Of a stretch of 64,000 nucleotides of DNA, positions 1,290-47,161 are shown one piece after another. A program made the position numbers and the translations under genes. The notes under the pieces are model-generated. The model was given only the letters and a program-made list of their open reading frames with translations, was not told where the DNA came from and searched no databases. This DNA comes from Aestuariivirga sp. (GTDB lineage: Bacteria; Pseudomonadota; Alphaproteobacteria; Rhizobiales; Aestuariivirgaceae): positions 1-64,000 of the forward strand of contig JAUXUN010000074.1 of NCBI GenBank assembly GCA_030680855.1, in the 5' to 3' direction. Position 1 is the first letter of the stretch. Every line of letters starts with the position of its first letter.

Positions 1290-1348
1290 GGGAAACTCCG
1301 TTCAGGCCCGGAGCCTAGCCCATAGCCGCGCGGCTTTCCCGCGGAAAA

Positions 1349-2044: not shown

Positions 2045-2046
2045 TT

Positions 2047-28570: not shown

Positions 28571-28580
28571 GCGTGTACTC

Positions 28581-28697
28581 CCCTCACCCTGAGGTGTCCG
28601 GCGCAGCCGGACCTCGAAGGGTTCTTACCGATTGAATTTGTGGCCGATGCTTCGAGGCTCGCACCGCATTCGCGGGGCTCGCACCTCAGCATGAGGG
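28581..28697. repeat. Palindromic intergenic repeat between hyuA and hyuB
   Basis: About 117 bp with outer 16-nt arms 28581-28596 and 28682-28697 (two mismatches) and inner complementary segments built on CTTCGAGG/CCTCGAAG. This layout is that of REP-like elements scattered in Hyphomicrobiales genomes. It fills almost the whole gap between the hyuA stop and the hyuB start and would form a large hairpin in the transcript. Confidence 0.75.
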
Positions 28698-28712
28698 TTA
28701 TTGGGATGGCGA

Positions 28713-30791: not shown

Positions 30792-30875
30792 GGCCGAGAT
30801 ACCTACTATTGCGCTGAGGTAAATCCTAGGGGCTTCGGACATGGCTGGGTTGACAGGGCAAGAACAGAGGCCGCA

Positions 30876-31919: not shown

Positions 31920-32270
31920 ATGGGCCGTCTTACGACGCACGTACTAGACACGAGTTCAGGCAAGCCTGCCGCCGGGCTGAAGATCGAATTGTGGTCGCTT
32001 GCCGCAACGCCTGAACTTATCAAGACGGCCAGCACCAACCGGGATGGCCGGGTTGAGGGCGCAATTCTCGAAGGTGATGATTTCAAGACCGGCACCTATG
32101 AACTCAGGTTTTATGCGGGCGCCTATCTCCGGGCGCGTGGCGTGAAGCTCGACGAGCCCGCTTTCCTTGATGTGATACCCATTTGTTTCGGCATTGCCGA
32201 CGTGAACCAGCACTATCACGTGCCCTTGCTGCTCTCGCCCTATGGCTATTCAACCTACAGGGGAAGTTAG
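31920..32270 (+). CDS. uraH: 5-hydroxyisourate hydrolase (transthyretin-like)
   Basis: 116 residues. It hydrolyses 5-hydroxyisourate, the product of urate oxidation, to OHCU. The N-terminus [19 protein letters not shown] has the conserved His of the active site, [19 protein letters not shown] holds the second His, and YRGS is the diagnostic C-terminal tetrapeptide. It opens the purine operon; the 105-bp gap before it is A+T-rich and should hold the promoter. xdhA starts 2 bp after its stop. No signal peptide, so cytoplasmic. Confidence 0.96.
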
Positions 32271-32272
32271 GC

Positions 32273-33742
32273 ATGGCGCGCCAGACAATCCGCTTCTTGC
32301 GCCGGGGACAGGTGGTGGAACTCTCCTCCATTCCGCCCACGCGCACGCTGCTGGATTATCTCCGCCTTGAGGAAAAATCCAAAGGCACCAAAGAAGGCTG
32401 CAACGAAGGCGACTGCGGCGCCTGCACCGTGGCGCTGGGTTCGCTTGATGAGGGCCGGGTGGTTTACGAACCAGTCAATGCTTGCATTCTCCTGCTGGGC
32501 CAGATTGACGGCAAGGAACTGATCACTATCGACGATCTTGCCGTCGATGGAAAACTGCATCCCGTGCAGAAGGCCTTTGTGGACAATCACGCCTCGCAAT
32601 GCGGCTTCTGTACGCCGGGTTTCGTGATGTCGCTGTTCACGCTTTATCACGCGGGCAAGAAGCCGACACGGCAGGAGATCGTTGACCACATCGCGGGCAA
32701 TCTTTGCCGTTGCACGGGCTACCGGCCGATTGTCGATGCGGCGGTGAAATCCTGCACGGGCAAGCCCGCCGATGCCTGGGTGGCAGCGGCCAAGGCAACC
32801 GCAAATCAATTGGCAGCGCTTGATGACGCTGCAGATGTTTTTATGGGCGATACCAGTACTTTCTTTGCAGCACCTTACCATGAGGAGGCACTCACCAGGC
32901 TTTATGCAGAACATCCCGATGCCACGATTGTTGCGGGTGCCACGGACGTGGGGCTGTGGGTCACCAAGCAGCTTCGAAACCTGCCGAAAATTATCCATAT
33001 CGGCCGGACCAAGGGGCTTTACAAAATCACCGACGAAGGCACGCATATTTCCATTGGCGCATCGGCGACCTATTCGAGCGCTGAATCGTTTCTCGCCTCG
33101 ATTGATCCCGATGTCGGCGAAGTGATCCGCCGGATCGGGGCCAAGCAGGTGCGCGCCTTGGGCACGGTTGGTGGCAATATCGCCAATGGCTCGCCCATCG
33201 GCGACAGCCCGCCGATGCTGATCGCCCTGGGAGCAACGCTTCATCTCCGCCATGGCGGGAATGTGCGGCACATGCCGCTGGAAGATTTTTTTATTGCCTA
33301 TGGCAAGCAGGACCGCGCCGCCGGCGAACTGGTCTGGCGCGTCGATGTTCCCAAGCTCAAGGCCAATGAGGTGTTTCGCGCCTTCAAGCTGACCAAGCGC
33401 TTTGATCAGGATATTTCGGCGGTGGTGGGCGCTTTCAAGTTCACGCTTGATGGCCGCGCGATCCTATCGGCCCGTATTGCATTTGGCGGCATGGCGGCAA
33501 CGCCGAAGCGGGCGCTGAAAACCGAAGCAGCGCTGCGTGGCGTTTCGCTGGATGCACCTCAGACGTGGGAGGGGGCGATCTTGCCGATGGCTGAAGATTA
33601 TCAGCCCATCGATGACATGCGGGCTTCGGCGGAATACCGGCTGGATGCGGCCCAGGCCCTGCTTCGCAAAGCGCTGATGGAAGTCGCTTCGGGACATTCT
33701 CGGGCAACGCGCGTTACCGGGCTTCGCGGGGAGGCTGCCTGA
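32273..33742 (+). CDS. xdhA: Xanthine dehydrogenase small subunit XdhA (2Fe-2S, FAD)
   Basis: 489 residues. The N-terminal [2Fe-2S] cluster ligands are C43, C48 and C51 in CNEGDCGACTVALG. The second cluster is in QCGFCTPGFVMS and CRCTGYRPI. The FAD domain from about 190 has ATIVAGATDVGLWVTK and GTVGGNIANGSPIGD. It accepts electrons from the Mo centre in XdhB and reduces NAD+. The ATG at 32273 was chosen because it lies 2 bp after uraH and starts at the family N-terminus; a longer frame overlaps uraH. Confidence 0.96.
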   Translation: MARQTIRFLRRGQVVELSSIPPTRTLLDYLRLEEKSKGTKEGCNEGDCGACTVALGSLDEGRVVYEPVNACILLLGQIDGKELITIDDLAVDGKLHPVQKAFVDNHASQCGFCTPGFVMSLFTLYHAGKKPTRQEIVDHIAGNLCRCTGYRPIVDAAVKSCTGKPADAWVAAAKATANQLAALDDAADVFMGDTSTFFAAPYHEEALTRLYAEHPDATIVAGATDVGLWVTKQLRNLPKIIHIGRTKGLYKITDEGTHISIGASATYSSAESFLASIDPDVGEVIRRIGAKQVRALGTVGGNIANGSPIGDSPPMLIALGATLHLRHGGNVRHMPLEDFFIAYGKQDRAAGELVWRVDVPKLKANEVFRAFKLTKRFDQDISAVVGAFKFTLDGRAILSARIAFGGMAATPKRALKTEAALRGVSLDAPQTWEGAILPMAEDYQPIDDMRASAEYRLDAAQALLRKALMEVASGHSRATRVTGLRGEAA

Positions 33743-33743
33743 G

Positions 33744-36056
33744 ATGAATGTGCGGGCGCGTATCCTTGAAACGGAAACGGTGGGTTTGGCACTTGCCCAT
33801 GACAGCGCCGCGCTGCATGTTCAGGGCACGGCTGTCTATATTGATGACATGCGCGAACCCGAGGGCACACTGCATGTGGAACCGGGCTATGCGCCAGACG
33901 ATGCGCGCGGGAAAATTACCAGCATCAATCTTGATGCAGTCCGCGCCTGTCCCGGCGTTGTCGCGTTGCTGGCGGCGAAGGATATTCCCGGCGTCAATGA
34001 TTGCAGCCCGGCGCTTGGCGATGATCCCATCTTTGCCGAGGGCGTGATTGAATTTCATGGCCAGGTGATTTTTGCCGTTGTTGCAGAAACGCGGGAAATT
34101 GCGCGGTGTGCGGCGCGGCTGGCGAAGATCGAGGTGGCTCCGATGCCGCCGGCGGTGACGGTGGAAGACGCGCTGGCCATGGGCACCACGGATGTGGTGC
34201 CGGAATATGCCTTCACTCATGGGGACGTAAAAAAAGCGCTCAAGGCAGCGCCCCATGTGATTTCGGAAAGCTTCCATGTGGGCGGGCAGGAGCATTTCTA
34301 TATCGAAGGGCAGGTGGCTTTGGCCATGCCGGAGGAAAAAGGCGGCATGACTGTCTATTCCTCCACCCAGCATCCCACCGAAGTGCAGCACTGCATCGCC
34401 AAGATGCTCAAGGTTCCCGACGCCATGGTGACATGCGAATGCCGGCGCATGGGCGGGGCCTTTGGCGGCAAGGAAAGCCAGGCGGCGCAGTGGGCGGCTT
34501 TGGCAGCGCTGGCGGCTCATGTGACGGGGCGTCCGGCCAAATGCCGGCTGGACCGCGACCAGGACATGATCATGACGGGCAAGCGCCATGACCTGCGCAT
34601 TGATTACAAGATCGGCTATGACGATACGGCGCGCCTCACCGCCGTTGATGTGGATTTTCTGGCGCGTTGCGGTTACTCCGCTGATCTCAGTCAGAGCGTG
34701 TGTGACCGCACCATGTTCCATGCGGACAATGCCTATTTCTATCCGGCCTATCACATCAAGTCGCGGCGGCTTCGCACCAATACGGTTTCCAATACGGCAT
34801 TCCGCGGCTTTGGCGGGCCACAAGGCATGATGTTTGCCGAGCGGGTGATGGATGCGATTGCCATTGAAACGGGGCTTGATCCGCTCGATGTGCGCAAACG
34901 CAATCTCTATGGGCGCGGGCGCGATGTGACGCCCTACCGGCAGAAGGTTGAAGACAACATCGCTCTTGAGATTATCGAGGCGCTGGAAAAATCCAGCAGT
35001 TACCGGGCGCGGCGGAAGAAGATTGCGAGTTTTAACAAGCAGAACCCAGTTCTGAAAAAAGGCATTGCCCTTACGCCGGTCAAGTTCGGGATTTCGTTCA
35101 CGCTCACCCATCTCAATCAGGCAGGCGCCCTTGTCCATGTCTATACGGATGGTTCGGTGCATCTCAATCATGGCGGCACGGAAATGGGGCAGGGGCTCTA
35201 TATCAAGATCGCACAGGTCGTGGCGGAAGTGTTCGGCATTTCGGCGGAGCGGGTGCGCATTACGGCGACGACTACCGGCAAGGTTCCCAATACGTCGCCC
35301 ACGGCGGCCTCATCGGGCGCGGACCTCAACGGCATGGCGGCAAAGACCGCGGCTTCGGCCATCAAAGCCCGCATGATTGATTTTGCGGCGAAGGAATGGA
35401 AAGTTGCCAAGTCGCGCATCAAATTTGAGAAGGGCCAGGTACTGATCGGCAACCAGCGCATTTCCTTCGGCGAACTGGCCAAGAAAGTTCAAGGCGGGCG
35501 GGTGTCGCTATCGTCCACGGGCTTCTACTCCACGCCGAAGATTACCTGGGACCGGCCCAATGGGCGCGGCAATCCGTTTTTCTATTTCGCCTATGGTGCA
35601 TCCTGCTCGGAAGTCACCATCGATACGATGACCGGGGAAATGCGGGTAGACCGGGTTGATATTCTTCATGATGTCGGGCGCTCTCTCAATCCGGCGATTG
35701 ACATGGGGCAGATTGAAGGGGGCTTCGTTCAGGGCATGGGCTGGCTCACAACCGAGGAACTGGTGTTTGACGACAAGGGGCGGCTTCGCACCCATGCGCC
35801 CTCCACTTACAAAATCCCTTGTGCCTCGGATGTGCCGGCGGATTTCCGGGTGAAGCTTTATGAAAGCGGCGGCAACCCCGCGGATTCAATTTACCGTTCC
35901 AAGGCGGTGGGCGAGCCGCCGCTGATGTTGCCGATTTCCGTGTGGTGCGCCATTGCCGATGCGGTTGGCAGCCTGAAGCCTGGGGTCATTCCAAAACTTG
36001 CCGCGCCGGCCACGCCGGAAGCCATTTTGCGGGCGGTGAAGGGGATGCAGGCATGA
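33744..36056 (+). CDS. xdhB: Xanthine dehydrogenase molybdopterin-binding subunit XdhB
   Basis: 770 residues. It oxidises hypoxanthine and xanthine to urate at a molybdenum cofactor. GGAFGGKESQAAQWA, NTAFRGFGGPQGM and HGGTEMGQGLYIKIAQ are Mo-cofactor motifs. The late Glu of the active site is expected in KAVGEPPLMLPISVW (about residue 725). The start is 1 bp after the xdhA stop and the end overlaps xdhC (ATGA). A long open frame on the opposite strand (33714-35171) is its shadow. Confidence 0.96.
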   Translation: MNVRARILETETVGLALAHDSAALHVQGTAVYIDDMREPEGTLHVEPGYAPDDARGKITSINLDAVRACPGVVALLAAKDIPGVNDCSPALGDDPIFAEGVIEFHGQVIFAVVAETREIARCAARLAKIEVAPMPPAVTVEDALAMGTTDVVPEYAFTHGDVKKALKAAPHVISESFHVGGQEHFYIEGQVALAMPEEKGGMTVYSSTQHPTEVQHCIAKMLKVPDAMVTCECRRMGGAFGGKESQAAQWAALAALAAHVTGRPAKCRLDRDQDMIMTGKRHDLRIDYKIGYDDTARLTAVDVDFLARCGYSADLSQSVCDRTMFHADNAYFYPAYHIKSRRLRTNTVSNTAFRGFGGPQGMMFAERVMDAIAIETGLDPLDVRKRNLYGRGRDVTPYRQKVEDNIALEIIEALEKSSSYRARRKKIASFNKQNPVLKKGIALTPVKFGISFTLTHLNQAGALVHVYTDGSVHLNHGGTEMGQGLYIKIAQVVAEVFGISAERVRITATTTGKVPNTSPTAASSGADLNGMAAKTAASAIKARMIDFAAKEWKVAKSRIKFEKGQVLIGNQRISFGELAKKVQGGRVSLSSTGFYSTPKITWDRPNGRGNPFFYFAYGASCSEVTIDTMTGEMRVDRVDILHDVGRSLNPAIDMGQIEGGFVQGMGWLTTEELVFDDKGRLRTHAPSTYKIPCASDVPADFRVKLYESGGNPADSIYRSKAVGEPPLMLPISVWCAIADAVGSLKPGVIPKLAAPATPEAILRAVKGMQA

Positions 36057-36988
36057 AGGTCTGGGCCCATATCGCCAAAGCACTGGAAGCGCATGGCACC
36101 TGCGCCATGATTTCGGTTGTGAAGGTTGAGGGGTCCACGCCCCGGGAAGCGGGTGCGCGCATTGTTGTTTCGCCACTGGGATTTCACGGGACGATTGGTG
36201 GCGGCACATTGGAATGGCAGGCGATTGCCAAGGCGCAAGCCATGCTCGGCAAGCCGGCGCAGCACAAGTTGAGCGTTCATTCGCTTGGTCCTGACTTGGG
36301 CCAATGCTGCGGCGGGCGGGTGGAACTGGTGACCGAAGTTTTTGCGCGCAATGATTTGGCAGCAGCAAGGGATTTCGCGGCGCGCGAAGAGAGTGGCGTG
36401 TTTGCGGTAACGGGACGGATTCTTGCGCCTGATTTCAGCGAGCAGTTTGGCGACAGCAACCGCAAGCTCTATCTCTTCGGGGCGGGGCATGTCGGGCGGG
36501 CTCTTATCCTCGCTCTTGCACCAATGCCGTTTGATGTGATCTGGATTGATCCTCGCGAGGGGGCGTTTCCTGCGGCTGTGCCTTCCAATGTGGTGACCAT
36601 CCAAAGTGAAAACCCTGCTGCGGAGATTGCTGATGCACTCGCCGGCAGTTTTGCGCTGGTGATGACCCATAGCCATGGCCTCGACCTTGAAATCATTGAT
36701 GCGGTTCTGCGAAGCCCAAGGTTTGCCTATGCGGGCCTGATTGGCAGCGCCACCAAGCGGGCGCGGTTCAGCAAGCGGCTGCGGGAGGCGGGCGTTGCGG
36801 AACGCCGGATCGAAGAACTGGTTTGCCCGATTGGCATTCCCAGCATAAAATCCAAGCACCCTGCCGCGATTGCGGCAGCAACGGCGGTGCAGCTTCTGGA
36901 ATGCGATGAACTGTTGAGAAGTGCGGCGGACCCACTCGCCGCCACGCCGGATTCGGCTATGGTTGGCCGGGGAAGGCGGGCGTCATGA
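36053..36988 (+). CDS. xdhC: Xanthine dehydrogenase accessory protein XdhC
   Basis: 311 residues. It binds molybdenum cofactor and assists its sulfuration and insertion into XdhB. The N-terminal XdhC/CoxI domain has VEGSTPREAGARIVV and GTIGGGTLEWQA, with LGPDLGQCCGGRVEL after it. The C-terminal Rossmann part has LYLFGAGHVGRALI and GLIGSATKRARF. The ATGA overlaps at both ends show tight coupling with xdhB and the ABC ATPase gene. Confidence 0.95.
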   Translation: MKVWAHIAKALEAHGTCAMISVVKVEGSTPREAGARIVVSPLGFHGTIGGGTLEWQAIAKAQAMLGKPAQHKLSVHSLGPDLGQCCGGRVELVTEVFARNDLAAARDFAAREESGVFAVTGRILAPDFSEQFGDSNRKLYLFGAGHVGRALILALAPMPFDVIWIDPREGAFPAAVPSNVVTIQSENPAAEIADALAGSFALVMTHSHGLDLEIIDAVLRSPRFAYAGLIGSATKRARFSKRLREAGVAERRIEELVCPIGIPSIKSKHPAAIAAATAVQLLECDELLRSAADPLAATPDSAMVGRGRRAS

Positions 36989-38526
36989 CGGCACCGGACT
37001 ATCTGCTTGAGGCCATCGACATCGTCAAGGTGTTCGGCACATTGCGGGCCAATGACGGGGTCACACTGCAGGTGGCGCCCGGCCAGATCCACGCGCTTCT
37101 GGGGGAAAACGGGGCCGGCAAATCCACCCTTGTCAAAATGCTTTACGGCTCGCTGCAACCCACCTCCGGAACAATCAAGTGGATGGGCCAGGAAGTTGTC
37201 ATTCCCAATCCCAATGCGGCGCGCAAGCTTGGCATCGGCATGGTGTTCCAGCACTTCTCACTGTTTGAATCCCTGACCGTCGTCGAGAACATTTCCCTGG
37301 CCATGCCCGGAAAATTCGATCTCGATGCGCTTTCCAAGAAGGTGGAGTTCTATTCCGGGGAATATGGCCTGCCGCTGAACCCGAAAGCCACGGTGGCGGA
37401 CCTGTCGGTGGGCGAACGCCAGCGCATTGAAATCCTGCGCTGCCTGATGCAGGAACCCAAGCTGCTGATCCTTGACGAGCCGACGGCTGTTTTAACGCCG
37501 CAGGAAGCGGACCTGCTCTTTCTCACGTTGAGACTACTGGCAAGCGAGGGCTGTTCGGTGCTTTACATCTCGCACCGGCTGGAAGAGGTGAAGCGCCTCT
37601 GCCACTGGGCCACGATCCTGCGCCACGGCAAGGTTGTTGCCTCCTGCGATCCGCGCGAGGAGACGGCGGCCAGCCTCGCCAGGCTCATGGTGGGCGGCGA
37701 TATCCACACGGTGCGCGCAGCCAAGGCGCCGAGGGATGGCGCGGTGCGTTTCTCACTGAAGAATGCCAGTCTCGAGGCTGACGGGCCCTTCGCGGTTGAA
37801 CTGAAAAATATCAATCTTGAGGTGCGTGGCGGCGAAGTCATTGCCATTGCCGGGGTTGCGGGCAATGGCCAATCAGAACTCTTTGATGCGATTTCCGGGG
37901 AACGGCCCCTATCCAATGGCAGTGCAGTTTCAATCGATGGCGCCTCGTGTGGCGCCATTGGGGTGACCGCACGCCGCAGGATGGGGGCCGCTTTTGTGCC
38001 CGAGGAGCGTCTTGGCCATGGCGCGGTTCCGGTCTTTCCATTGTCCGAAAATGTTGTACTGACGCGGCATTCGGATGACGCGTCACTGGCGGAAAACGGA
38101 CTTCTGAATCGCGGCAAGGCCAATTCCATCGCGGACCGGGTGATCAAAACCTATGATGTGCGCATGGGAAAGCCCGATCCTGAAGCCCGTTCGCTGTCGG
38201 GCGGAAACCTGCAAAAATTTGTGGTGGGGCGCGAACTGGACCGCCAGCCGAAGGTGCTGGTTGTCAATCAGCCGACCTGGGGCGTTGACGCAGGTGCTGC
38301 GGCAACGATCCGCCAGGCGCTGATCGATCTTGCGCGCTCGGGCTCGGCGGTTGTGGTGATCAGCCAGGACCTGGACGAAATTTTCGAACTGGCGGACCGC
38401 ATTGCGGTGATTTCCCGCGGGCAGCTTTCCGAAGCGCATCCCGCGCATGAAATGACGGCGGAAAAAATCGGCCTGATGATGGCCGGTTCGCACGAGAAGG
38501 AGTCGCCCCATGCGGCTCATTCTTGA
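36985..38526 (+). CDS. Nucleoside/purine ABC transporter ATPase (two ABC domains, BMP type)
   Basis: 513 residues with two ATP-binding halves. The first has GENGAGKSTLVKM at about 38 and LSVGERQRIEILRCL with LLILDEPTAVLTP. The second has degenerate Walker A (GVAGNGQSELFDAI) and LSGGNLQKFVVGREL, as in NupA/YufO-type transporters. Known relatives import nucleosides; the place between xdhC and puuD suggests a purine nucleoside or base. It overlaps xdhC by 4 nt and the next permease by 17 nt. Confidence 0.9.
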   Translation: MTAPDYLLEAIDIVKVFGTLRANDGVTLQVAPGQIHALLGENGAGKSTLVKMLYGSLQPTSGTIKWMGQEVVIPNPNAARKLGIGMVFQHFSLFESLTVVENISLAMPGKFDLDALSKKVEFYSGEYGLPLNPKATVADLSVGERQRIEILRCLMQEPKLLILDEPTAVLTPQEADLLFLTLRLLASEGCSVLYISHRLEEVKRLCHWATILRHGKVVASCDPREETAASLARLMVGGDIHTVRAAKAPRDGAVRFSLKNASLEADGPFAVELKNINLEVRGGEVIAIAGVAGNGQSELFDAISGERPLSNGSAVSIDGASCGAIGVTARRRMGAAFVPEERLGHGAVPVFPLSENVVLTRHSDDASLAENGLLNRGKANSIADRVIKTYDVRMGKPDPEARSLSGGNLQKFVVGRELDRQPKVLVVNQPTWGVDAGAAATIRQALIDLARSGSAVVVISQDLDEIFELADRIAVISRGQLSEAHPAHEMTAEKIGLMMAGSHEKESPHAAHS

Positions 38527-39592
38527 GAAGCGGGCCGACCGCTCACCATTCTTTGCCATTGCCTCGCCGTTTCTGGCGCTTCTGCTGACGCTGATTGCGG
38601 GCGGGCTGATCTTCGCCTTGCGCGGGATCAATCCGCTGGAAGGGCTTTACGTCTATTTCATCGAACCCCTCACGCAGCTCTGGTCGGTCGAACAGCTTAT
38701 CGTCAAGGCCGCGCCGCTGGTCCTCATCGGCGTCGGGCTTGCGGTTTGCTACATGGCCAATGTCTGGAACATCGGGGCCGAGGGGCAACTGACCATGGGC
38801 GCCGTTTGCGGCAGCATTGCGCCAGTGATGTTTCCTGAATGGCAGGACCCGTCGGTCCTTGTTGTCATGCTCATCATGGGAATGATCGGCGGCGCACTTT
38901 ACGGGGCCATTCCGGGCCTGCTGAAAACGCGCTTCAACGCCAATGAAATCCTGACTTCCCTCATGCTGGTTTATGTGGCCGCACTGTTTCTTGACTGGCT
39001 GGTGCGGGGGCCGTGGCGCGATCCCCAAGGATATAATTTTCCGGTCACAAAAACTTTCGCGGGCTGGCAGCTGCTTCCGACCTTTGGCGGCACCATCCAT
39101 CTCGGCGCACTGTTCGCACTGCTTGCCTGCGCCGCCCTGGCCTTTGTGATGGGAAAGACGCTCATCGGGTTTGAGATCAAGGTCACGGGCAACGCGCCGC
39201 GCGCCGGGCGCTTTGCCGGCTTTTCACGGAACCGGATGGTGATGCTCTGTTTCCTGCTTTCCGGAGGGCTCGCGGGCCTTGCGGGCATTTGCGAAGTCGC
39301 CAGCGTTGTCGGCAAGTTGCAGCCGCAGATATCTCCCGGCTATGGTTTTGCGGCGATCATCGTGGCTTTCCTTGGCCGCCTCAATCCGCTCGGCGTGCTG
39401 TTTGCTGGGTTGCTGCTGGCGCTGAGCTACATCGGCGGCGAGGCGGCTCAGGTGACGCTGGGGATTTCCGACAAGATCGCCAAGGTGTTCCAGGGCATCC
39501 TGCTGTTCTTCATCCTGTCCTGCGACACGCTTATTCTCTACCGGATCAAATTTGAGATGGGCCGCGTGGGCGCGCTCAAGGCGGCGGAGTAG
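38510..39592 (+). CDS. Nucleoside ABC transporter permease 1 (YufP/NupB-like)
   Basis: 360 residues with about ten membrane segments, first near FLALLLTLIAGGLIFALRG. ANVWNIGAEGQLTMGAVCGS and TRFNANEILTSLMLVYVA are typical of the BMP-linked permeases (BPD_transp_2 family). With the next gene it forms the transmembrane pore for the importer powered by the preceding ATPase. The start overlaps the ATPase gene end by 17 nt and has AAGGAG upstream. Confidence 0.9.
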   Translation: MRLILEKRADRSPFFAIASPFLALLLTLIAGGLIFALRGINPLEGLYVYFIEPLTQLWSVEQLIVKAAPLVLIGVGLAVCYMANVWNIGAEGQLTMGAVCGSIAPVMFPEWQDPSVLVVMLIMGMIGGALYGAIPGLLKTRFNANEILTSLMLVYVAALFLDWLVRGPWRDPQGYNFPVTKTFAGWQLLPTFGGTIHLGALFALLACAALAFVMGKTLIGFEIKVTGNAPRAGRFAGFSRNRMVMLCFLLSGGLAGLAGICEVASVVGKLQPQISPGYGFAAIIVAFLGRLNPLGVLFAGLLLALSYIGGEAAQVTLGISDKIAKVFQGILLFFILSCDTLILYRIKFEMGRVGALKAAE

Positions 39593-39593
39593 G

Positions 39594-40472
39594 ATGGTGG
39601 ACCAAAGCCTTGCAGTCATGCTGACCATCATCACCGCCGCGACGCCGCTGCTGATTGCCGCCATGGGCGAACTGGTTGTCGAGCGTTCGGGTGTTCTCAA
39701 TCTGGGTGTTGAAGGCATGATGGTCATGGGAGCCGTGGCGGGGTTCGCGGTGGCATTCCTCACGGGATCAACCCTGCTGGGGGTGGGGGCCGCAATCTTC
39801 GCTGGGGTTGCGATGTCGGCGCTGTTTGGATTTCTCACGCTGACCCTGGTGGCCAACCAGGTGGCGGCCGGGCTTGCCCTCACCCTTCTGGGGCTTGGCC
39901 TTTCCGGCCTGATCGGCGAGGCTTTTGTCGGCCAGCCCGGCGTCAAGATGCCGACGCTTTTCGGCATTGACGCGCTTGTGCCGTTTTCCTTCATTCTCAC
40001 GGCGGGGGTGGCTTATGCGCTGTTCAAAACCAAGATCGGGCTTGTCATCCGCGCGGTCGGCAACAGCCATAATTCGGCGCATGCCCTGGGTTACCGGGTC
40101 ATCGCGCTGCGCTATCTCAGCGTGATGTTTGGCGGGGCCTGCGCGGGCCTTGCCGGGGGCTACCTGTCGCTTGCCTATACGCCGCAATGGATCGAGAACA
40201 TGACGGCGGGTCGCGGCTGGATTGCGCTTGCACTGGTGGTCTTTGCGTCCTGGCGGCCCCTGCGCGCGCTGATTGGCGCCTATCTTTTTGGCGCAGTGTC
40301 GATTATGGGCTTTGTTGTCCAGTCCATGGGGCTTGGCATCCCCCCGCAATTCCTTTCGGCGCTGCCTTATATCGTGACGATCATCGCGCTGGTGATCATT
40401 TCCGGAAACAAGCGGCTGACGCAGGCCAATACACCGGCTTGCCTTGCCCAATCTTTTGTGCCTGATAGATAA
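39594..40472 (+). CDS. Nucleoside ABC transporter permease 2 (YufQ/NupC-like)
   Basis: 292 residues with about eight membrane segments. GVLNLGVEGMMVMGAVAGF and GNSHNSAHALGYRV are family motifs. The ATG at 39594 lies 1 bp after the previous stop; a longer frame from 39552 is antifamily in sequence and overlaps the first permease. A gap of 83 bp then leads to the binding protein. Confidence 0.9.
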   Translation: MVDQSLAVMLTIITAATPLLIAAMGELVVERSGVLNLGVEGMMVMGAVAGFAVAFLTGSTLLGVGAAIFAGVAMSALFGFLTLTLVANQVAAGLALTLLGLGLSGLIGEAFVGQPGVKMPTLFGIDALVPFSFILTAGVAYALFKTKIGLVIRAVGNSHNSAHALGYRVIALRYLSVMFGGACAGLAGGYLSLAYTPQWIENMTAGRGWIALALVVFASWRPLRALIGAYLFGAVSIMGFVVQSMGLGIPPQFLSALPYIVTIIALVIISGNKRLTQANTPACLAQSFVPDR

Positions 40473-40555: not shown

Positions 40556-41623
40556 ATGAAGAAATTATTGATGACAGCCGCGGTGGCGGCGATTGCGCTG
40601 GGGCTGGGATCGACAGCCTCGCTGGCTGAGGCTTACAAGGCCTGCTGGATCTATGTGGGCCCGGTGGGCGATGGCGGCTGGTCGTTCCAGCACGACGAGG
40701 GCCGCAAGGCCGTTGTTGCCGAACTGGGCGACAAGGTGGAAACCGTATTCGTTGAAAACGTTCCCGAACCCGATTCCGACCGCACCATCGAGCGGCTGGC
40801 GCGGGATGGCTGCAAGATGATTTTCACCACCTCATTCGGCTTCATGGAGCCCACCCTGAAGGTGGCGGCGAAATTTCCGGATGTGAAGTTTGAGCATGCG
40901 ACGGGCTACAAGACCGCGCCCAACGTCACAACCTATAACTCCAAGTTCCACGAGGGCCGCTACGTGATCGGCCAGATCGCCGCCAAGATGTCAAAGACCG
41001 GAACGGCGGGCTATATCGTGTCCTTCCCGATTCCTGAAGTTGTAGCCGGCATCAATGCCTTCATGCTGGGGGCGCAGACCGTCAATCCTGATTTCAAGGT
41101 GAAAATTGTCTGGGCCAACACCTGGTTTGACCCGGGCAAAGAAGCCGATGCCGCCAAGGTTCTGTTGAGCCAGGGTGCGGATATCCTCGTCCAGCACACG
41201 GACTCCACCGCGCCGCTGCAGATCGCCCAGGAGCAGGGCAAGCTCGGCTTTGGCCAGGCTTCGGACATGATGGCCTTTGCACCCAAGGCGCAGCTCACGG
41301 CAATTGTCGATAGCTGGGGCCCCTATTACATCAGGCGCGTCAAGGCCGGCATGGATGGGACATGGGCTTCTCAGCAATCCTGGGACGGCATGGCCGAAGG
41401 CAATGTGACGATGGCGCCTTATGCCAACATGCCCGATGACGTGGCCAAGATGGCCACCGAGACCCAGGCCGCGATTACGGCCGGCACGCTTCACCCGTTC
41501 ACTGGGCCTATCACCAAGCAGGATGGCACGGTTGCCGGCGAAGCCGGCAAGCCGCTTCCCGATGGTGATATTCTGGGAATGAATTGGTACGTGAAGGGCG
41601 TTGACGATAAGTTGCCGCAATAA
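40556..41623 (+). CDS. BMP-family substrate-binding protein of the nucleoside importer
   Basis: 355 residues. A Sec signal peptide ends near STASLAEAYK. The mature protein has WIYVGPVGDGGWSFQHDEG, then TTSFGFMEPTLKVAAKFP and FHEGRYVIGQIAAKMSKT, all typical of the BMP (PnrA/Med-like) family that binds nucleosides or, in some members, purine bases. GGGAG lies 8 nt before the ATG. Unlike lipoprotein members it has no lipobox Cys, as expected for a Gram-negative periplasmic protein. In this operon a purine or urate-type ligand is plausible. Confidence 0.9.
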   Translation: MKKLLMTAAVAAIALGLGSTASLAEAYKACWIYVGPVGDGGWSFQHDEGRKAVVAELGDKVETVFVENVPEPDSDRTIERLARDGCKMIFTTSFGFMEPTLKVAAKFPDVKFEHATGYKTAPNVTTYNSKFHEGRYVIGQIAAKMSKTGTAGYIVSFPIPEVVAGINAFMLGAQTVNPDFKVKIVWANTWFDPGKEADAAKVLLSQGADILVQHTDSTAPLQIAQEQGKLGFGQASDMMAFAPKAQLTAIVDSWGPYYIRRVKAGMDGTWASQQSWDGMAEGNVTMAPYANMPDDVAKMATETQAAITAGTLHPFTGPITKQDGTVAGEAGKPLPDGDILGMNWYVKGVDDKLPQ

Positions 41624-41662: not shown

Positions 41663-41699
41663 TTTTCATGACATTTGATATCCGGCGCCTGGAGCCATA

Positions 41700-43778
41700 A
41701 TGGATCCGTTTGTAATCGAATGGCTGAATCTGCTCGCCCGCTGGGGGCACATGATTGCCGGCATCGCCTGGATTGGCACGTCGTTTTATTTCGTGGCGCT
41801 GGATTTTTCCCTGAAGAAACCGCCAGGCCTGCCGGAAGGCGTTTCGGGAGAGGCGTGGGAAGTTCATGGCGGCGGCTTTTATAACGTCCGCAAATATCTG
41901 AGCGCGCCCGCCAAGCTTCCCGAAGACCTGATCTGGTTCAAGTGGGAAGCCTATCTCACCTGGGTTACAGGCTTTCTGCTTCTCTGCTTGCAGTATTACG
42001 TTAACGCCGGGTCCTATCTTGTTGATCCGGCTGTGCTATCACTTTTGCCGTGGCAGGCGATTGTCATCTCGCTGGGCAGCCTTGCGGTGGGCTGGATCTT
42101 CTATGATTTTCTGTGCCGCCGATTTGCGGTGTCTCAACCCCAACTCTTGGCTGGCTTGGTTTTCGTGCTGATCATGGCGGCCTCCTATGGCTACACCCAG
42201 GTCTATTCCGGGCGCGGGGCCTTCATTCACATCGGCATATTCATCGGCACCTTGATGGCGGCCAATGTATTCGCGGTCATCATTCCCAACCAGCGGAAGA
42301 TTACCGCGGCGCTGATCAGGGGCGAAACGCCTGATCCCGCCTTTGGCGCAACCGGCAAGCAGCGCTCATTGCATAACACTTACCTGACTTTGCCGGTGCT
42401 GGTGATGATGGTTTCAAACCATTACGCGATGCTCATCGATCATCCGCAGGCGTGGCTTCTTGCAGGCCTCATCATTGTAGGTGGCGTGGCGCTGCGGCAC
42501 TTCCTGGTGCGCCATGAAGTGGGCGATCCGCTGAACAAGATCGCCTGGACCCTGCCGGTCATTTTTCTGGCGCTGGGCCTTGCCTTCTGGCTGACGGGCG
42601 CCGGCCCGCTTGATGAAGACTGGTGGAACCTGCTGTTGCGTTGGGGACATATGATTGCCGGCATCGCCTGGATCGGTACGAGCTTCTACTTTGTGGCGCT
42701 CGATTTTTCCCTGCGCAAGCGCGAGGGCCTGCCTGAGGGCGTTTCTGGTGAAGCCTGGGAAGTTCATGGCGGCGGCTTTTACAATGTGCAGAAGTACCTG
42801 GTTGCTCCCACCAAGTTGCCCGGCGATCTCATCTGGTTCAAATGGGAAGCCTATCTCACCTGGGTCACGGGTTTTCTCCTGCTCATCGTGCAGTACTATC
42901 TCAATGCGAGCACCTATCTGATCTCGCAGGACGTGCTGGTGCTCGCGCCGTGGCAGGCCATCGGCATATCCGTTGCAACTCTCATCGCGGGCTGGATCAT
43001 TTACGATCTTCTGTGCCGCTCACCCCTTGTGCGGAGGCCGGAACTTCTCGCCCTCTGCGTGGCCTTGCTCATTCTCGTTGCAGCCTATGGTTTTACCCAG
43101 GTGTTTTCCGGCCGTGGGGCGCTGATCCATGTCGGTTCTTTCATTGGCACGATCATGGCGGCCAATGTTTTCATGGTGATCATTCCAAACCAAAAAAAAA
43201 CCACGCAAGCGCTGCTTCGCGGCGAAACCCCTGATCCGAGCTTTGGTGTTACCGGCAAACAGCGTTCGCTGCACAATACCTATCTGACACTGCCGGTTCT
43301 CCTGATGATGATCAGCAATCATTATCCGATGATAACCGAGCATATGCATGCCTGGATCCTCGTTGGCCTGATTGTTGTGGGCGGTGCGGCACTGCGCCAC
43401 TTTCTTGTTCGCATTGAAGTGGGGGATCCGGTAGCGCAAATCGCCTGGACAATTCCCGTCATCAGCGGCGCGCTGGCTGCGGCCCTGTGGTTCACGGAGC
43501 CGGAGGCAACTCCAGCTTATTCCGGTACCGTTACGGATGATGAGGCGCTGACAATTGTCAAGACGCGCTGCAGTTCCTGCCATGCGCAAACGCCAAGCGA
43601 TGCCACGACCAAGACGGCACCCAAGGGAATTGCGCTGGAAACACTGGACGAGTTGAAGCGCTATGCGCAGCAGATTGAAACGCAGGCGGTGAAAAACAAG
43701 GCCATGCCGCTGGGCAACAAGACGGGCATGGTGGCGGAAGAACGGGCAAAACTGGGGGCATGGATAAATACGCAATGA
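41700..43778 (+). CDS. puuD: Membrane urate hydroxylase PuuD with internally duplicated membrane domain and one cytochrome c domain
   Basis: 692 residues, against about 400 for ordinary PuuD, the cytochrome-linked membrane enzyme that turns urate into 5-hydroxyisourate. Residues 1-300 and 301-600 are two copies of the eight-helix urate-oxidase membrane domain. RWGHMIAGIAWIGTSFYF occurs at about 14 and about 314, and WEVHGGGFYNV, LIWFKWEAYLTWVTGF, TGKQRSLHNTYLTLPVL are in both. The offset is exactly 900 bp throughout with no net indel. Only the second copy is followed by a haem domain, TRCSSCHAQTPSD, haem Cys 624 and 627, His 628. In one sampled 60-base stretch (41821 on versus 42721 on) 49 of 60 bases agree. 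GGAG lies 5 nt before the ATG. It follows the nucleoside importer and couples to uraD by ATGA. Confidence 0.93.
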   Translation: MDPFVIEWLNLLARWGHMIAGIAWIGTSFYFVALDFSLKKPPGLPEGVSGEAWEVHGGGFYNVRKYLSAPAKLPEDLIWFKWEAYLTWVTGFLLLCLQYYVNAGSYLVDPAVLSLLPWQAIVISLGSLAVGWIFYDFLCRRFAVSQPQLLAGLVFVLIMAASYGYTQVYSGRGAFIHIGIFIGTLMAANVFAVIIPNQRKITAALIRGETPDPAFGATGKQRSLHNTYLTLPVLVMMVSNHYAMLIDHPQAWLLAGLIIVGGVALRHFLVRHEVGDPLNKIAWTLPVIFLALGLAFWLTGAGPLDEDWWNLLLRWGHMIAGIAWIGTSFYFVALDFSLRKREGLPEGVSGEAWEVHGGGFYNVQKYLVAPTKLPGDLIWFKWEAYLTWVTGFLLLIVQYYLNASTYLISQDVLVLAPWQAIGISVATLIAGWIIYDLLCRSPLVRRPELLALCVALLILVAAYGFTQVFSGRGALIHVGSFIGTIMAANVFMVIIPNQKKTTQALLRGETPDPSFGVTGKQRSLHNTYLTLPVLLMMISNHYPMITEHMHAWILVGLIVVGGAALRHFLVRIEVGDPVAQIAWTIPVISGALAAALWFTEPEATPAYSGTVTDDEALTIVKTRCSSCHAQTPSDATTKTAPKGIALETLDELKRYAQQIETQAVKNKAMPLGNKTGMVAEERAKLGAWINTQ

Positions 43779-44272
43779 AAACGATTGAGCAGGTTAATGA
43801 CTTAAGTTCAGCGGAATTCGAGAAAGCTTTTGGCGATGTGGCCGAGCATACGCCCTGGGTGGCGCGCAATGCGGCGGGCGAAAGGCCCTTCGTCTCGCGG
43901 GAATCCATGATCAGGGCTTTTCATGAGGCGGTTCATTCCGCATCGGAAACGGCGCAACTGGCCTTGATCCGGGCGCATCCGGACCTGGCGAGCAAGGCAA
44001 GGCTCACAGGTGACTCAGCCCATGAGCAGGCGCAGGCGGGGCTGGGCGCGTTGACCGCCGAGGAGTTTGCGCGCTTCACCCATCTCAACGAATTCTATAA
44101 ATCCAAGTTTGATTTTCCCTTCATCTTCGCAGTAAAGGGGGCCACGAAACAGCAAATCCTGGCGAGCTTTGCCGAACGGGTGAATCACTCCAAGGACGAA
44201 GAGTTCGCCATGGCGCTGGGCCAGGTGTGCCGCATCTTCCGTTTCCGCATTGAGGACCGTGTTGCGCCATGA
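43775..44272 (+). CDS. uraD: OHCU decarboxylase
   Basis: 165 residues. It decarboxylates 2-oxo-4-hydroxy-4-carboxy-5-ureidoimidazoline to S-allantoin, completing the conversion begun by PuuD and UraH. LIRAHPDLASKA contains the catalytic His (about residue 70), and FKSKFDFPFI-like text appears as EFYKSKFDFPFIFAVKG. The ATG at 43775 gives an ATGA overlap with puuD; an in-frame ATG at 43760 is a less likely start. The gene couples to guaD by another ATGA. Confidence 0.95.
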   Translation: MKTIEQVNDLSSAEFEKAFGDVAEHTPWVARNAAGERPFVSRESMIRAFHEAVHSASETAQLALIRAHPDLASKARLTGDSAHEQAQAGLGALTAEEFARFTHLNEFYKSKFDFPFIFAVKGATKQQILASFAERVNHSKDEEFAMALGQVCRIFRFRIEDRVAP

Positions 44273-45561
44273 CGAAACTTATCCGCGGGCAAACCCTGAG
44301 TTTCGGCAAGACGCATCATGAGGTCACCCATGAAAGCAAGGGCGGGGTGGTCATTGGCGATGACGGAACGATTTTGTGGAGCGGGCCTCTCACGCTGTTG
44401 CCGCGGAATTTTCAGGGCCTTGCAACGGATGACTTTGGCGGCAATATTGTCATGGCCGGTTTCATTGATGCCCATATTCATTTTCCACAGCTTCGCATGC
44501 TCGCCGCACCGGGAAAGGATTTACTGGACTGGCTGACCCGCTTCACCTTTCCTGAGGAGGCGCGCTATTCCGACTCCGACTATGCCAAGGCAAACGCCAA
44601 GACTTTTCTGCAGAACCTGTTTGTAAATGGCACGACGGCGGCCATGGCCTTCTGCTCGGTGCACAAGACCTGTGCTGATGCGCTGTTCGGCGAAGCGCAG
44701 TCGCGCGGGATGGCGCTGGTGACCGGCAAAACGATGATGGACCGCAATGCGTTGCCTGCAGTGCATGATGACGCCACAACGGGCGGAAAGGACTCTGAAT
44801 CGCTTTATCAGACGTGGCATGGCAAGGGCCGTCTGCGCTATGCCATTTCGCCGCGCTTTGCGATTACCTCGACGGAGGCGCAATTGAAGGTTTCGGGTGA
44901 GTTGCTAAAATCCTATCCGGATGCGCTGATGCAGACTCATCTTTCAGAAAGCCCGGGTGAGATTGCCTGGATCAAGTCGTTGTTTCCCAATGACCGCGAT
45001 TATACGGCGGTTTATGAGCGTTTCGGATTAGTGAATGACCACGGCGTATTTGCCCATGGGGTTCATTTGTCGGAGAGCGAATGCCAGCGGTTGCATGAGG
45101 CGGGCGCAACCATCGCCCATTGTCCCACGTCAAATAATTTTTTGGGTTCCGGATTGATGTCAATGAAGCATCTGGGAAAGAAGGAACGGCCCATTCCCGT
45201 TGCGCTGGCGACCGATGTGGGCGGGGGCACGACTTATTCCATGCTGGCAACACTCGGCGAGGCCTACAAAGTGCAGATGCTCACGGGCTACAAGCCAACG
45301 GCGCTGGAACTCTTTTGGATGGCCACGCGTGGCAATGCGGAGCGCCTGCGGCTTGATCATGAAATCGGGGCGCTTGAGACGGGGAAGTTCGCGGATATCG
45401 TGGTGCTTGACCCGCGGGCAACGCCGGTTCTGGCGGCGCGGCAGGACCTGTCGCAATCGCTGGAAGACATGCTGTTCGCCCTGATGATATTGGGCGATGA
45501 CCGGGCCATTCGTGCTACCTATGTGGCGGGAGAAAAAGTTCATGACCGGCTATCCGCGTGA
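44269..45561 (+). CDS. guaD: Guanine deaminase
   Basis: 430 residues of the zinc amidohydrolase fold. It deaminates guanine to xanthine, the XDH substrate. AGFIDAHIHFPQLRML carries the HxH metal ligands at about 68-70. MQTHLSESPGEIAWIKSLFP holds the next His. HGVHLSESECQRL, AHCPTSNNFLGSG and VALATDVGGGTTYSML with the late Asp complete the site. It ends the operon that begins at uraH. The next gene, 92 bp on, is a regulator. Confidence 0.95.
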   Translation: MTKLIRGQTLSFGKTHHEVTHESKGGVVIGDDGTILWSGPLTLLPRNFQGLATDDFGGNIVMAGFIDAHIHFPQLRMLAAPGKDLLDWLTRFTFPEEARYSDSDYAKANAKTFLQNLFVNGTTAAMAFCSVHKTCADALFGEAQSRGMALVTGKTMMDRNALPAVHDDATTGGKDSESLYQTWHGKGRLRYAISPRFAITSTEAQLKVSGELLKSYPDALMQTHLSESPGEIAWIKSLFPNDRDYTAVYERFGLVNDHGVFAHGVHLSESECQRLHEAGATIAHCPTSNNFLGSGLMSMKHLGKKERPIPVALATDVGGGTTYSMLATLGEAYKVQMLTGYKPTALELFWMATRGNAERLRLDHEIGALETGKFADIVVLDPRATPVLAARQDLSQSLEDMLFALMILGDDRAIRATYVAGEKVHDRLSA

Positions 45562-45653: not shown

Positions 45654-46391
45654 ATGCGCAAAGCAACGAAGCTAAAGCCTTCAAAAATTGGCGTGAAAAC
45701 AAATCCCCGCGGTAAACGTCCCGGCCTGCGTGATAAATCAATTCATCTCGAATTATCCAGGGCCATAGTTGATCATCGCATTCCACCGGGAACTGCCCTT
45801 CAGGAAGATGCGCTATCGACTGCATTTGGAGTGAGCCGCACTGTCATTCGCAAAGTTCTGCAAAAACTATCCCATGAAAGACTGGTTGACCTTGCTCCCA
45901 ACAAGGGAGCTACGGTGGCACGGCCATCGGCCGAAGAAGCAAAGGAGGTTTTTGATGCGCGGCGGCTCATTGAGAAAATTCTTGTCGAGCGCGTTGTGGC
46001 CACGGCTGATGACGGGAGCATTGACGAGCTGGGAAAGCTGGTCGCCGCTGAAAAATCTGCTTTTGATACCGGCGACAAGACATTAAGACTCAATCTGTCG
46101 GGCAACTTTCATCGGCAACTTGCCAGGCTGGCTGGCAATAGCGTATTGGATGACTTTCTCAATGAACTTATATCGAGGACGTCTCTCATCATCGCCCTAT
46201 ACGAGTCTCCTGGTGCGGTTCCTTGTTCACACAGTGAACACATGGAAATTGTCGGTGCCCTGAAACGCAGGGATGCAAAGAAAGCGGCTCAATTCATGGA
46301 CCATCATCTTCAACATATCGAGGCCCAGATTGAGCTTTCAGAAGACTACGCCCGCGTTGACTTCAAAAACATGTTCAGCAAGTCTGGTTAG
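45654..46391 (+). CDS. GntR-family regulator (FadR/FCD subfamily)
   Basis: 245 residues. A winged helix is at about 30-90 (IPPGTALQEDALSTAFGVS, then KLSHERLVDLAPNKGATV). A helical FCD ligand domain follows with NFHRQLARLAGN and HMEIVGALKRRD, whose His and Asp residues usually bind a metal and a carboxylate ligand. The ATG at 45654 has AGGG upstream; the open frame starts further up at 45585. It stands 4 nt convergent to the racemase gene. A 12-bp palindrome, ATTGTATACAAT, upstream of the next transporter is a typical operator for this subfamily, so that operon is the likely target, with allantoin or a ureide as inducer. Confidence 0.88.
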   Translation: MRKATKLKPSKIGVKTNPRGKRPGLRDKSIHLELSRAIVDHRIPPGTALQEDALSTAFGVSRTVIRKVLQKLSHERLVDLAPNKGATVARPSAEEAKEVFDARRLIEKILVERVVATADDGSIDELGKLVAAEKSAFDTGDKTLRLNLSGNFHRQLARLAGNSVLDDFLNELISRTSLIIALYESPGAVPCSHSEHMEIVGALKRRDAKKAAQFMDHHLQHIEAQIELSEDYARVDFKNMFSKSG

Positions 46392-47161
46392 CGCGATATC
46401 GACTTGCCATTTGTCATCGCCGGTCTCGAGGGTGGAGCGTAGCTTTCAAGCTTCCCCTTGTAGGATTTATGAAGCGGATAGGCGAGGTCGCCGTGCTTGC
46501 TTGTCTTAAGGCCTATTCCGACGAGCGCCTCGGCAAACTTCACGGCTGCTGCCACACCATCGATCACCGGTACGCCAAGTTTTCCTTCGAGGTAGCGTGC
46601 AAGGTCCGCCATGCCGGCACACCCGAGCACTATGGCACCAGATTTATCTTCCATGATTGCCTTTTTGCACTCCGCGAGAATGAGCGCACGGGCATTGGAC
46701 TTTGGATTTTCAAGCTCCAGAACCGGCAGTTCGGTGGCACGCACGCCGCGACAATGATGTTCCATGCCATAGTTCCGCACGAGATGTTCGGCAATGATCC
46801 GTGTACGATCCAGAGTCGTGACAATTGAAAAGCCCGTGGCAATGAAGCTCGCCGCATGCATGGCCGCCTCGGCAATGCCCAGCACGGGGCCGGTTGCAAC
46901 CTCGCGCGCGGCAAGGAGGCCTGGATCACCGAAGCAGGCGATGATGTAGGCATCTGTTTCCTCTGCTTCACCTTCGCGAATCTCGTCGACAAGACCAACG
47001 ATGCTTAGTGCTTCATCATAGTGGCTCTCGATTGAAACGGCCCCGGACAGGGACGTTACCGCCACGATTTCAGTACCTTGCGCGGCAACCGCCCGTGCTG
47101 CAGCGGCAATTGTTTCTGTCATCGAGACCGTCGTGTTCGGATTGATGATCCTGATGCGCAT
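46388..47161 (-). CDS. Hydantoin/allantoin racemase (Asp/Glu racemase superfamily)
   Basis: 257 residues. The N-terminus RIRIINPNTTVSMTETI is the signature of the HyuE/HpxA group. The two catalytic Cys are in IIACFGDPGL (about 75) and VLGCAGMADL (about 180). In a purine-degrading context it should interconvert S- and R-allantoin, whereas hydantoin racemase would fit the hyuAB genes. Its last 4 nt overlap the GntR gene, and its 5' side shares a 222-bp gap, with the palindrome, with the ABC transporter. Regulation by that GntR protein is therefore likely. Confidence 0.88.
   Translation of the reverse strand: MRIRIINPNTTVSMTETIAAAARAVAAQGTEIVAVTSLSGAVSIESHYDEALSIVGLVDEIREGEAEETDAYIIACFGDPGLLAAREVATGPVLGIAEAAMHAASFIATGFSIVTTLDRTRIIAEHLVRNYGMEHHCRGVRATELPVLELENPKSNARALILAECKKAIMEDKSGAIVLGCAGMADLARYLEGKLGVPVIDGVAAAVKFAEALVGIGLKTSKHGDLAYPLHKSYKGKLESYAPPSRPAMTNGKSISR

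What the first reader, a model, noticed from the sequence alone, without database searches (positions are those of the whole stretch)
41700..43778. PuuD with two membrane domains in exact 900-bp register and one cytochrome
Ordinary urate hydroxylase PuuD is about 400 residues: one membrane domain and a C-terminal cytochrome c. Here the whole membrane domain occurs twice (codons 1-300 and 301-600) with an offset of 900 bp at every point compared, and only copy 2 has the haem domain. In a sampled 60-base stretch 49 bases agree, so both copies have diverged while staying open and in register, which suggests selection on both. The protein may be a fused dimer with one electron outlet, or one copy may have become a transport or regulatory domain. 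I know of no description of such a form.
Basis: partly seen in the sequence, partly recalled or inferred. Interest (0 to 1): 0.78.

Follow-up and report, generated by a model that had tools for sequence, protein, structure and literature searches.

The report
Doubled membrane urate oxidase, one cytochrome
A bacterial membrane enzyme that breaks down uric acid has been built twice in a row within one protein while keeping a single electron-carrying haem tail; several related species carry the same double form, so it is real, probably works, and could show whether the ordinary enzyme acts as a pair.

Summary
Confirmed. Window 41700-43778 (+) is one 692-codon gene with two Urate_ox_N (PuuD) membrane domains, ungapped at a 300-codon offset, and one C-terminal CxxCH cytochrome. 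It is no assembly artefact: 18 of 69 family genomes carry the double form (14 full length, 3 cut by contig ends, 1 frameshifted), including cultured Aestuariivirga litoralis. It holds the usual puuD place in a purine operon and is the genome's only PuuD. No double was seen outside the family among 398 phylum, 397 order and 385 class genomes sampled.

Over 15 doubles, both halves keep 60 family-conserved columns in about 99% of cells, and the four invariant histidines in 30 of 30 halves. Both are under purifying selection. A duplication private to the A. litoralis group is rejected; one old duplication fits but is not proved. AlphaFold gives 16 helices, pTM 0.86. Best reading: a fused pseudo-dimer, two competent urate sites, one haem outlet. 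Searched papers list no such form. New variant of a known enzyme.

The parts
41700..43778 (+). puuD, double-domain form, 692 aa plus stop
   Evidence: RBS-like GGAG at 41691-41694
41706..42596 (+). copy 1: 8-helix urate oxidase membrane domain (codons 3-299), no cytochrome of its own
   Evidence: one of two PF06181 stretches, helices in the model, conserved columns
42597..42614 (+). six-residue link (codons 300-305), predicted periplasmic, between helix 8 of copy 1 and helix 1 of copy 2
   Evidence: model helix limits; no K/R in the link; one 1-residue deletion near it among the aligned doubles (L007)
42615..43493 (+). copy 2: 8-helix urate oxidase membrane domain (codons 306-598)
   Evidence: PF06181 stretch 307-593
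43536..43775 (+). single C-terminal cytochrome c domain (codons 613-692)
   Evidence: C324 C327 H328 M369 columns; Pfam Cytochrome_CBB3 E 1.2e-4, below the gathering score
43569..43583 (+). CxxCH haem-attachment motif (codons 624-628), only one in the protein
43704..43706 (+). Met669, the family's conserved distal haem ligand
   Evidence: column 369 is M in 98/98 singles and in 14/14 doubles that reach it; role as ligand from PMC4562309
43775..44272 (+). uraD (OHCU decarboxylase); likely start ATG at 43775 in an ATGA overlap with the puuD stop (ORF open from 43760)
   Evidence: TIGR03164 E 2.9e-54; sequence; start is my inference
44269..45561 (+). guanine deaminase, 4-bp overlap with uraD
   Evidence: TIGR02967 over cut-off; coordinates
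40556..41623 (+). Bmp-type ABC substrate-binding protein directly upstream
   Evidence: PF02608
36985..40472 (+). ABC importer ATPase and two permeases (36985-38526, 38510-39592, 39552-40472)
31920..36988 (+). uraH (31920-32270), xdhA (32183-33742), xdhB (33744-36056), xdhC (35942-36988)
   Evidence: PF00576; TIGR02963/02965/02964 over cut-off

Best explanation
The gene encodes a covalently fused pseudo-dimer of the membrane urate oxidase PuuD. SHOWN: two complete membrane domains in one frame, one cytochrome, recurrence of the form across species, and retention of the family's conserved residues in both halves. PREDICTED: eight helices per half, 16 in all. Because eight is an even number, both halves lie the same way up (N-out, C-out), so both conserved faces meet the cytosol and the single cytochrome c is periplasmic. 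INFERRED: both halves oxidise urate on the cytosolic side; the electrons of both leave through the one cytochrome c, either by direct docking at the interface or by passing from copy 1 through copy 2. The likely origin is an in-frame duplication of codons ~1-300 in an ancestor within the Aestuariivirgaceae, perhaps tolerated because ordinary PuuD already works as a dimer. Some relatives now have single genes, possibly by collapse of the repeat.
For: Two ungapped domains. In 15 double-form genomes copy 1 keeps the 60 membrane columns that are >=97% conserved in 98 distinct single-domain PuuDs in 888 of 900 cells, copy 2 in 889 of 900; His17, His56, His225 and His241 are kept in 30 of 30 halves. 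Mean pN/pS over 78 pairs of 13 genomes: copy 1 0.258, copy 2 0.292, cytochrome 0.352; dN/dS in five close pairs 0.067-0.112 for copy 1, 0.077-0.150 for copy 2. The eight short predicted outer segments have no K/R, in copy 1 and copy 2 alike. AF2 of the whole protein: mean pLDDT 87.8, pTM 0.86 over 692 residues; I read so high a pTM as confident relative placement of the halves. Same operon slot (Bmp - puuD - uraD - guaD) as many single genes. Only PuuD in the genome. Tree: four single genes with their own cytochrome lie inside the copy-1 clade (16 of 17 copy-1 rows, 90/85), and four singles of the Taklimakanibacter group lie with the own group's copy 2 (97/77); if those placements hold, each type of half works alone.
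Against: I have no activity, stoichiometry or solved structure for any double form. Retained residues show constraint, not catalysis; copy 1 could be held for folding or dimer contacts. It is not known to me that ordinary PuuD is a dimer. Coordinates and PAE of the model were not available, so the interface and the site of the cytochrome were not inspected, and copy 1 was modelled from 15 rows only. The nested single genes rest on moderate support, and the AU tests do not reject those singles lying outside (copy 1 rows alone as a clade p 0.319).
Confidence: 0.55

Rival explanations
1. Copy 1 is a structural or electron-relay half: it is needed for assembly, membrane packing or for the dimer interface, but only copy 2, next to the cytochrome, turns over urate.
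For: Only copy 2 is followed by the cytochrome. The halves differ consistently in helix 8, the VII-VIII loop and the periplasmic VI-VII loop.
Against: Copy 1 evolves no faster than copy 2 on average and in 4 of 5 close pairs, and it keeps the VHGGGFY and GKQRSLHN motifs that a purely structural half would not obviously need.
Confidence: 0.25
2. Neutral ratchet: an in-frame duplication fixed by drift in an enzyme that already worked as a homodimer, giving no new function; both sites are active but nothing is gained over two separate chains, and one cytochrome is lost.
For: Singles and doubles coexist in one genus, many in the same operon slot, and they are interleaved on the trees.
Against: The form is kept in 12 of the 13 genomes of one clade, the thirteenth being undetermined, although a direct repeat could collapse. 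This is weak evidence.
Confidence: 0.12
3. Copy 1 has become a urate transporter or sensor coupled to the enzyme.
For: An 8-helix membrane bundle looks transporter-like; nothing more.
Against: Family-conserved residues are kept in 888 of 900 cells; the operon has its own ABC importer; Doniselli et al. 2015 (PMC4562309, parts 1-3 of 6 read) argue against transport by this domain.
Confidence: 0.05
4. Assembly or gene-calling artefact (two adjacent or collapsed genes).
For: Several MAG contigs end inside puuD.
Against: One open frame in 14 genomes, among them a 665,913-base contig of the cultured A. litoralis KCTC 52945; the copies are 64-73% identical in 15 genomes, too unlike for an assembler to confuse.
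Confidence: 0.01

Closest known systems
PuuD / COG3748 membrane cytochrome c urate oxidase (Doniselli et al. 2015, PMC4562309), Pfam PF06181
   Same: Each half is a full PF06181 domain; same conserved His and motifs; C-terminal CxxCH...M cytochrome; operon with uraH, uraD and xdh.
   Different: Two membrane domains and 692 residues against one domain and about 400 residues; one cytochrome per two domains.
Single-domain PuuD of the Taklimakanibacter group, including Aestuariivirga sp. YIM B02566 (L118-L120, L021)
   Same: Closest single genes: 79% identical to copy 2 and 72-74% to copy 1 over the membrane domain; same gene order.
   Different: One membrane domain.
Short 4-helix DUF989 proteins (described in PMC4562309)
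   Same: Partial match to the same Pfam family by that paper.
   Different: No cytochrome and other gene context by that paper; not studied here beyond weak hits that may be such proteins.

Membership tests
PuuD membrane urate oxidase | 8-helix Urate_ox_N (DUF989, PF06181) domain at the N-terminus | tested here: met
   Two PF06181 stretches; 8 long helices per half in the models
PuuD membrane urate oxidase | C-terminal cytochrome c with CxxCH and a distal Met | tested here: met
   Motif columns conserved; Pfam cytochrome hit weak, below gathering score
PuuD membrane urate oxidase | Gene neighbourhood with uraH and uraD, and no other urate oxidase | tested here: inconclusive
   uraH, xdhABC, uraD, guaD adjacent, so the neighbourhood part is met; no PF01014 uricase in 8 of 8 double-form genomes searched, but HpxO and HpyO were not searched for
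PuuD membrane urate oxidase | One membrane domain, about 400 residues (usual architecture) | tested here: not met
   Two domains, 692 aa. This is what makes it a variant; I count the feature as usual rather than defining
PuuD membrane urate oxidase | N-out/C-out topology with a periplasmic cytochrome | tested here: inconclusive
   Charge pattern agrees; no experiment
PuuD membrane urate oxidase | Oxidises urate | not testable with these tools
   Needs an assay

The most novel reading that the evidence does not exclude
The working unit of PuuD urate oxidase is a dimer, and this lineage has frozen it in one chain with two active cytosolic urate sites but a single haem outlet, so electrons of copy 1 must cross between protomers. 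Each half has four invariant His: His56 in the cytosolic I-II loop, His225 near the cytosolic end of helix 6, His17 inside helix 1 and His241 at the outer end of helix 6. These could hold cofactors that wire each site across the membrane to the shared cytochrome.
Probability: 0.3. Interest if true: 0.7.

Novelty: new variant of a known kind. Interest (0 to 1): 0.52.

Why it matters
The mechanism, cofactor and oligomeric state of PuuD appear to be open (the founding paper reports a genetic, not a purified, system), and no relative has a solved structure by sequence search. A natural two-domain, one-cytochrome form lets one mutate each half separately within one chain, which a homodimer does not allow. 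It therefore makes two questions directly testable: whether PuuD works as a dimer, and how electrons reach the cytochrome.

Tried and rejected
Assembly artefact: rejected, because the same architecture is in 17 other genomes of the family. A duplication private to a small group: rejected for the A. litoralis group (AU p 1.2e-87 against its copies 1 and 2 forming their own clade; 5 genomes, 10 rows). For the window's own group it is only marginally disfavoured (p 0.063; p 0.0455 with four Taklimakanibacter-group singles added), and for G040/L127 it is open (p 0.40). A further test was labelled a 12-genome group but held 20 rows from 10 genomes and left out L109, so I do not lean on it (p 5.7e-59). 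In one search all doubled rows as one clade was not rejected either (p 0.121). Three of the eight tests started did not finish; two of them were run to the end, and one (copy 2 with the Taklimakanibacter group and L122) was not run again.

Chimeric origin of the nested single genes: 19 copy-discriminating columns were read along them; the patterns are mixed and outgroup singles are mixed too, so no crossover could be placed.

Fold search of the copy-2 model in the PDB: no Foldseek match with E <= 0.001 (best E 3.5), and VIA-align best Z 7.6 over 57 residues, which is no evidence either way. No coordinate file was found among the session files, so distances between His residues and the docking of the cytochrome could not be measured. 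The copy-1 half of the double model rests on the 15 double rows only: all 48 single-domain rows, fragments included, aligned to copy 2. The first rpoB tree had 7 wrong-frame rows and was replaced, which holds 50 of the 61 family genomes with an rpoB match; G016 and G008 among the doubles are not in it. The first dN/dS script left out G023 (Ns) and stopped before its close pairs; close pairs were computed. Two long open frames outside the family were checked and are single PuuDs with an open stretch upstream: G094 (673 aa) and G491 (555 aa). The match lists are cut at weak matches, and a distant double could have been missed, since their threshold was E 1e-160.

Full report
WHAT IS THERE. Window 41700-43778 (+) is a single 692-codon frame with two ungapped direct repeats offset by exactly 900 bp. 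Pfam finds two Urate_ox_N (PF06181) stretches. A CxxCH occurs once, at codon 624, followed by Met669. The cytochrome is weak to Pfam (Cytochrome_CBB3 E 1.2e-4, under the gathering score), but its ligand columns are invariant in 98 of 98 single-domain relatives and kept in every double that reaches them (15 of 15 for CxxCH, 14 of 14 for the Met). The copies are 72% identical in protein and nearly saturated at synonymous sites (pS 0.675).

SURROUNDINGS. The gene sits in a run of purine genes on one strand: uraH, xdhA, xdhB, xdhC, ABC ATPase, two permeases, Bmp binding protein, puuD, uraD, guanine deaminase. The puuD stop overlaps a uraD start as ATGA at 43775, and uraD and guaD overlap by 4 bp at 44269. 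It is the only PuuD in the genome, and no PF01014 uricase was found in 8 of 8 double-form genomes searched, own included, while the control rang in 2 of 14 named genomes. HpxO and HpyO were not searched for.

DISTRIBUTION. In the family search 50 of 69 genomes have a PuuD match; in the genus search 34 of 37. The double form is full length in 14 genomes of the genus, own included. It is cut by a contig end in G040 (another genus), G009 and G035, and frameshifted in G008, a 66%-complete MAG: 18 of 69 in all. G001, G006 and G024 have fragments that I could not class. Outside the family no double was seen: 186 of 398 phylum genomes have some match, own the only double among the matches listed, with no other listed open frame over 555 aa; 14 of 397 order genomes pass E 1e-160, with 6 doubles, all in this genus; 2 of 385 class genomes pass, own being the only double. 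A long open frame in G094 and one in G491 were checked and are single. In 12 of 12 double loci whose held DNA spans both sides of an unbroken puuD, Bmp lies upstream and uraD and guaD downstream; four further double loci (L115, L116, L127, L131) show part of this (in L131, the frameshifted one, uraD was not matched). Single genes of relatives sit in the same slot, though in several genus singles xdhB and no Bmp was matched upstream.

CONSERVATION. In 98 distinct single PuuDs, 60 membrane-domain columns are at least 97% conserved. Over 15 doubles copy 1 departs in 12 of 900 cells (R172S in 2, V233A in 1, Y242F in 9) and copy 2 in 11 of 900 (F29L in 1, Y242F/V in 10). The four invariant His (17, 56, 225, 241) are kept in 30 of 30 halves. 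The copies differ consistently elsewhere: the N-terminal end, loop I-II, helix 3, the periplasmic VI-VII loop, the VII-VIII loop and helix 8. Mean pN/pS is 0.258 for copy 1, 0.292 for copy 2 and 0.352 for the cytochrome over 78 pairs (13 of the 14 full-length genomes; G023 was dropped). In five close pairs dN/dS is 0.067-0.112, 0.077-0.150 and 0.076-0.172 respectively, copy 1 being lower than copy 2 in four of five. Copy 1 is thus held about as tightly as copy 2 or more so.

HISTORY. In a 73-row tree 16 of 17 copy-1 rows, from the window's group and the A. litoralis group alike, fall together with four genus singles (90/85); 11 of 16 copy-2 rows form their own clade (98/96); four singles of the Taklimakanibacter group join the three copy-2 rows of the window's group (97/77); both copies of G040 (L127) and copy 2 of G002 (L109) are unplaced. 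Neither all copy 1s nor all copy 2s as one clade is rejected (AU p 0.319 and 0.216). A duplication private to the A. litoralis group is rejected (p 1.2e-87); for the window's group p is 0.063, and for G040 0.40. In the rpoB tree (50 of 61 genomes with rpoB) 12 doubles plus the undetermined G001 form one half of the genus (93/87); three doubles of the window's group are in the other half, beside single-domain genomes (99/97); G040 and Taklimakanibacter lie outside the genus. By presence alone, one gain with two losses and three gains cost the same (my count). The gene tree leans to one old duplication with later collapses, without proof.

STRUCTURE AND MECHANISM. The copy-2-plus-cytochrome half is modelled well (pLDDT 88.7, pTM 0.85), with eight long helices and a beta hairpin over the VHGGGFY motif. 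The whole protein gives pLDDT 87.8 and pTM 0.86 with the same pattern twice and six residues between helix 8 and helix 9; copy 1 was informed by 15 rows only. The eight short outer segments predicted have no Lys or Arg, while the two I-II loops have six each and the other inner segments none to three, in agreement with the N-out/C-out topology proposed for PuuD (PMC4562309; parts 1-3 of 6 read). From this I infer two cytosolic urate sites in one chain and one periplasmic haem outlet. The route of electrons from copy 1 is unknown. That PuuD is a dimer is a hypothesis that this gene suggests, not a result. His56 lies in the cytosolic I-II loop and His225 near the cytosolic end of helix 6, His17 inside helix 1 and His241 at the outer end of helix 6; a cofactor at either pair is speculation.

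KNOWN OR NEW. No solved relative is found by sequence. The founding PuuD paper has no mention of tandem, duplication, dimer or repeat in its main text (term search). Searches of the open-access library for PuuD, its family names and fusion terms list few papers, and no title or abstract start shows such a form (of these only PMC4562309 was read, in part). An Aestuariivirga genome paper (PMC8555084) contains none of urate, purine or PuuD (term search only). Subscription papers are mostly not covered. I file the gene as a new architectural variant of PuuD.

Noticed in passing
window 42423-42425 and 43323-43325 (codons 242 and 542): Tyr242, invariant in 98 of 98 single PuuDs and next to invariant His241, is Phe in 9 of 15 copy 1s and Phe or Val in 10 of 15 copy 2s; the window's own copies keep Tyr. 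Constraint at this outer-side position seems relaxed in some doubles.
   Followed up: partly
G000:C2:330-4372 (own genome, outside the window): rpoB of the own genome is matched in two abutting pieces (330-875 and 875-4372), as if frameshifted, plus an N-terminal fragment on contig 14.
   Followed up: no
L138 and L146: PuuD loci titled Immundisolibacterales and Gammaproteobacteria group with Alphaproteobacterial singles and share Bmp-puuD-guaD order, but no UraD was matched at E 1e-8 in the held DNA; a transferred operon is possible.
   Followed up: no
L123-L126, L128-L130, L134, L140, L093, L028, L030, L024: Among 13 loci of single-domain PuuDs of the same genus (some from the same genome), 7 show xdhB and no Bmp upstream, 5 show ABC permease plus Bmp, and 1 starts at a contig end: two operon layouts.
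   Followed up: partly
window 26900-30842 (-) and 46388-47161 (-): Two adjacent hydantoinase/caprolactamase-like subunits (NF050156, NF050157, under cut-off) upstream of the purine genes, and an Asp/Glu/hydantoin racemase (PF01177) downstream.
   Followed up: no
L018 / L041 (G008): The double puuD of this low-coverage MAG is broken into three frames, probably sequencing error.
   Followed up: no
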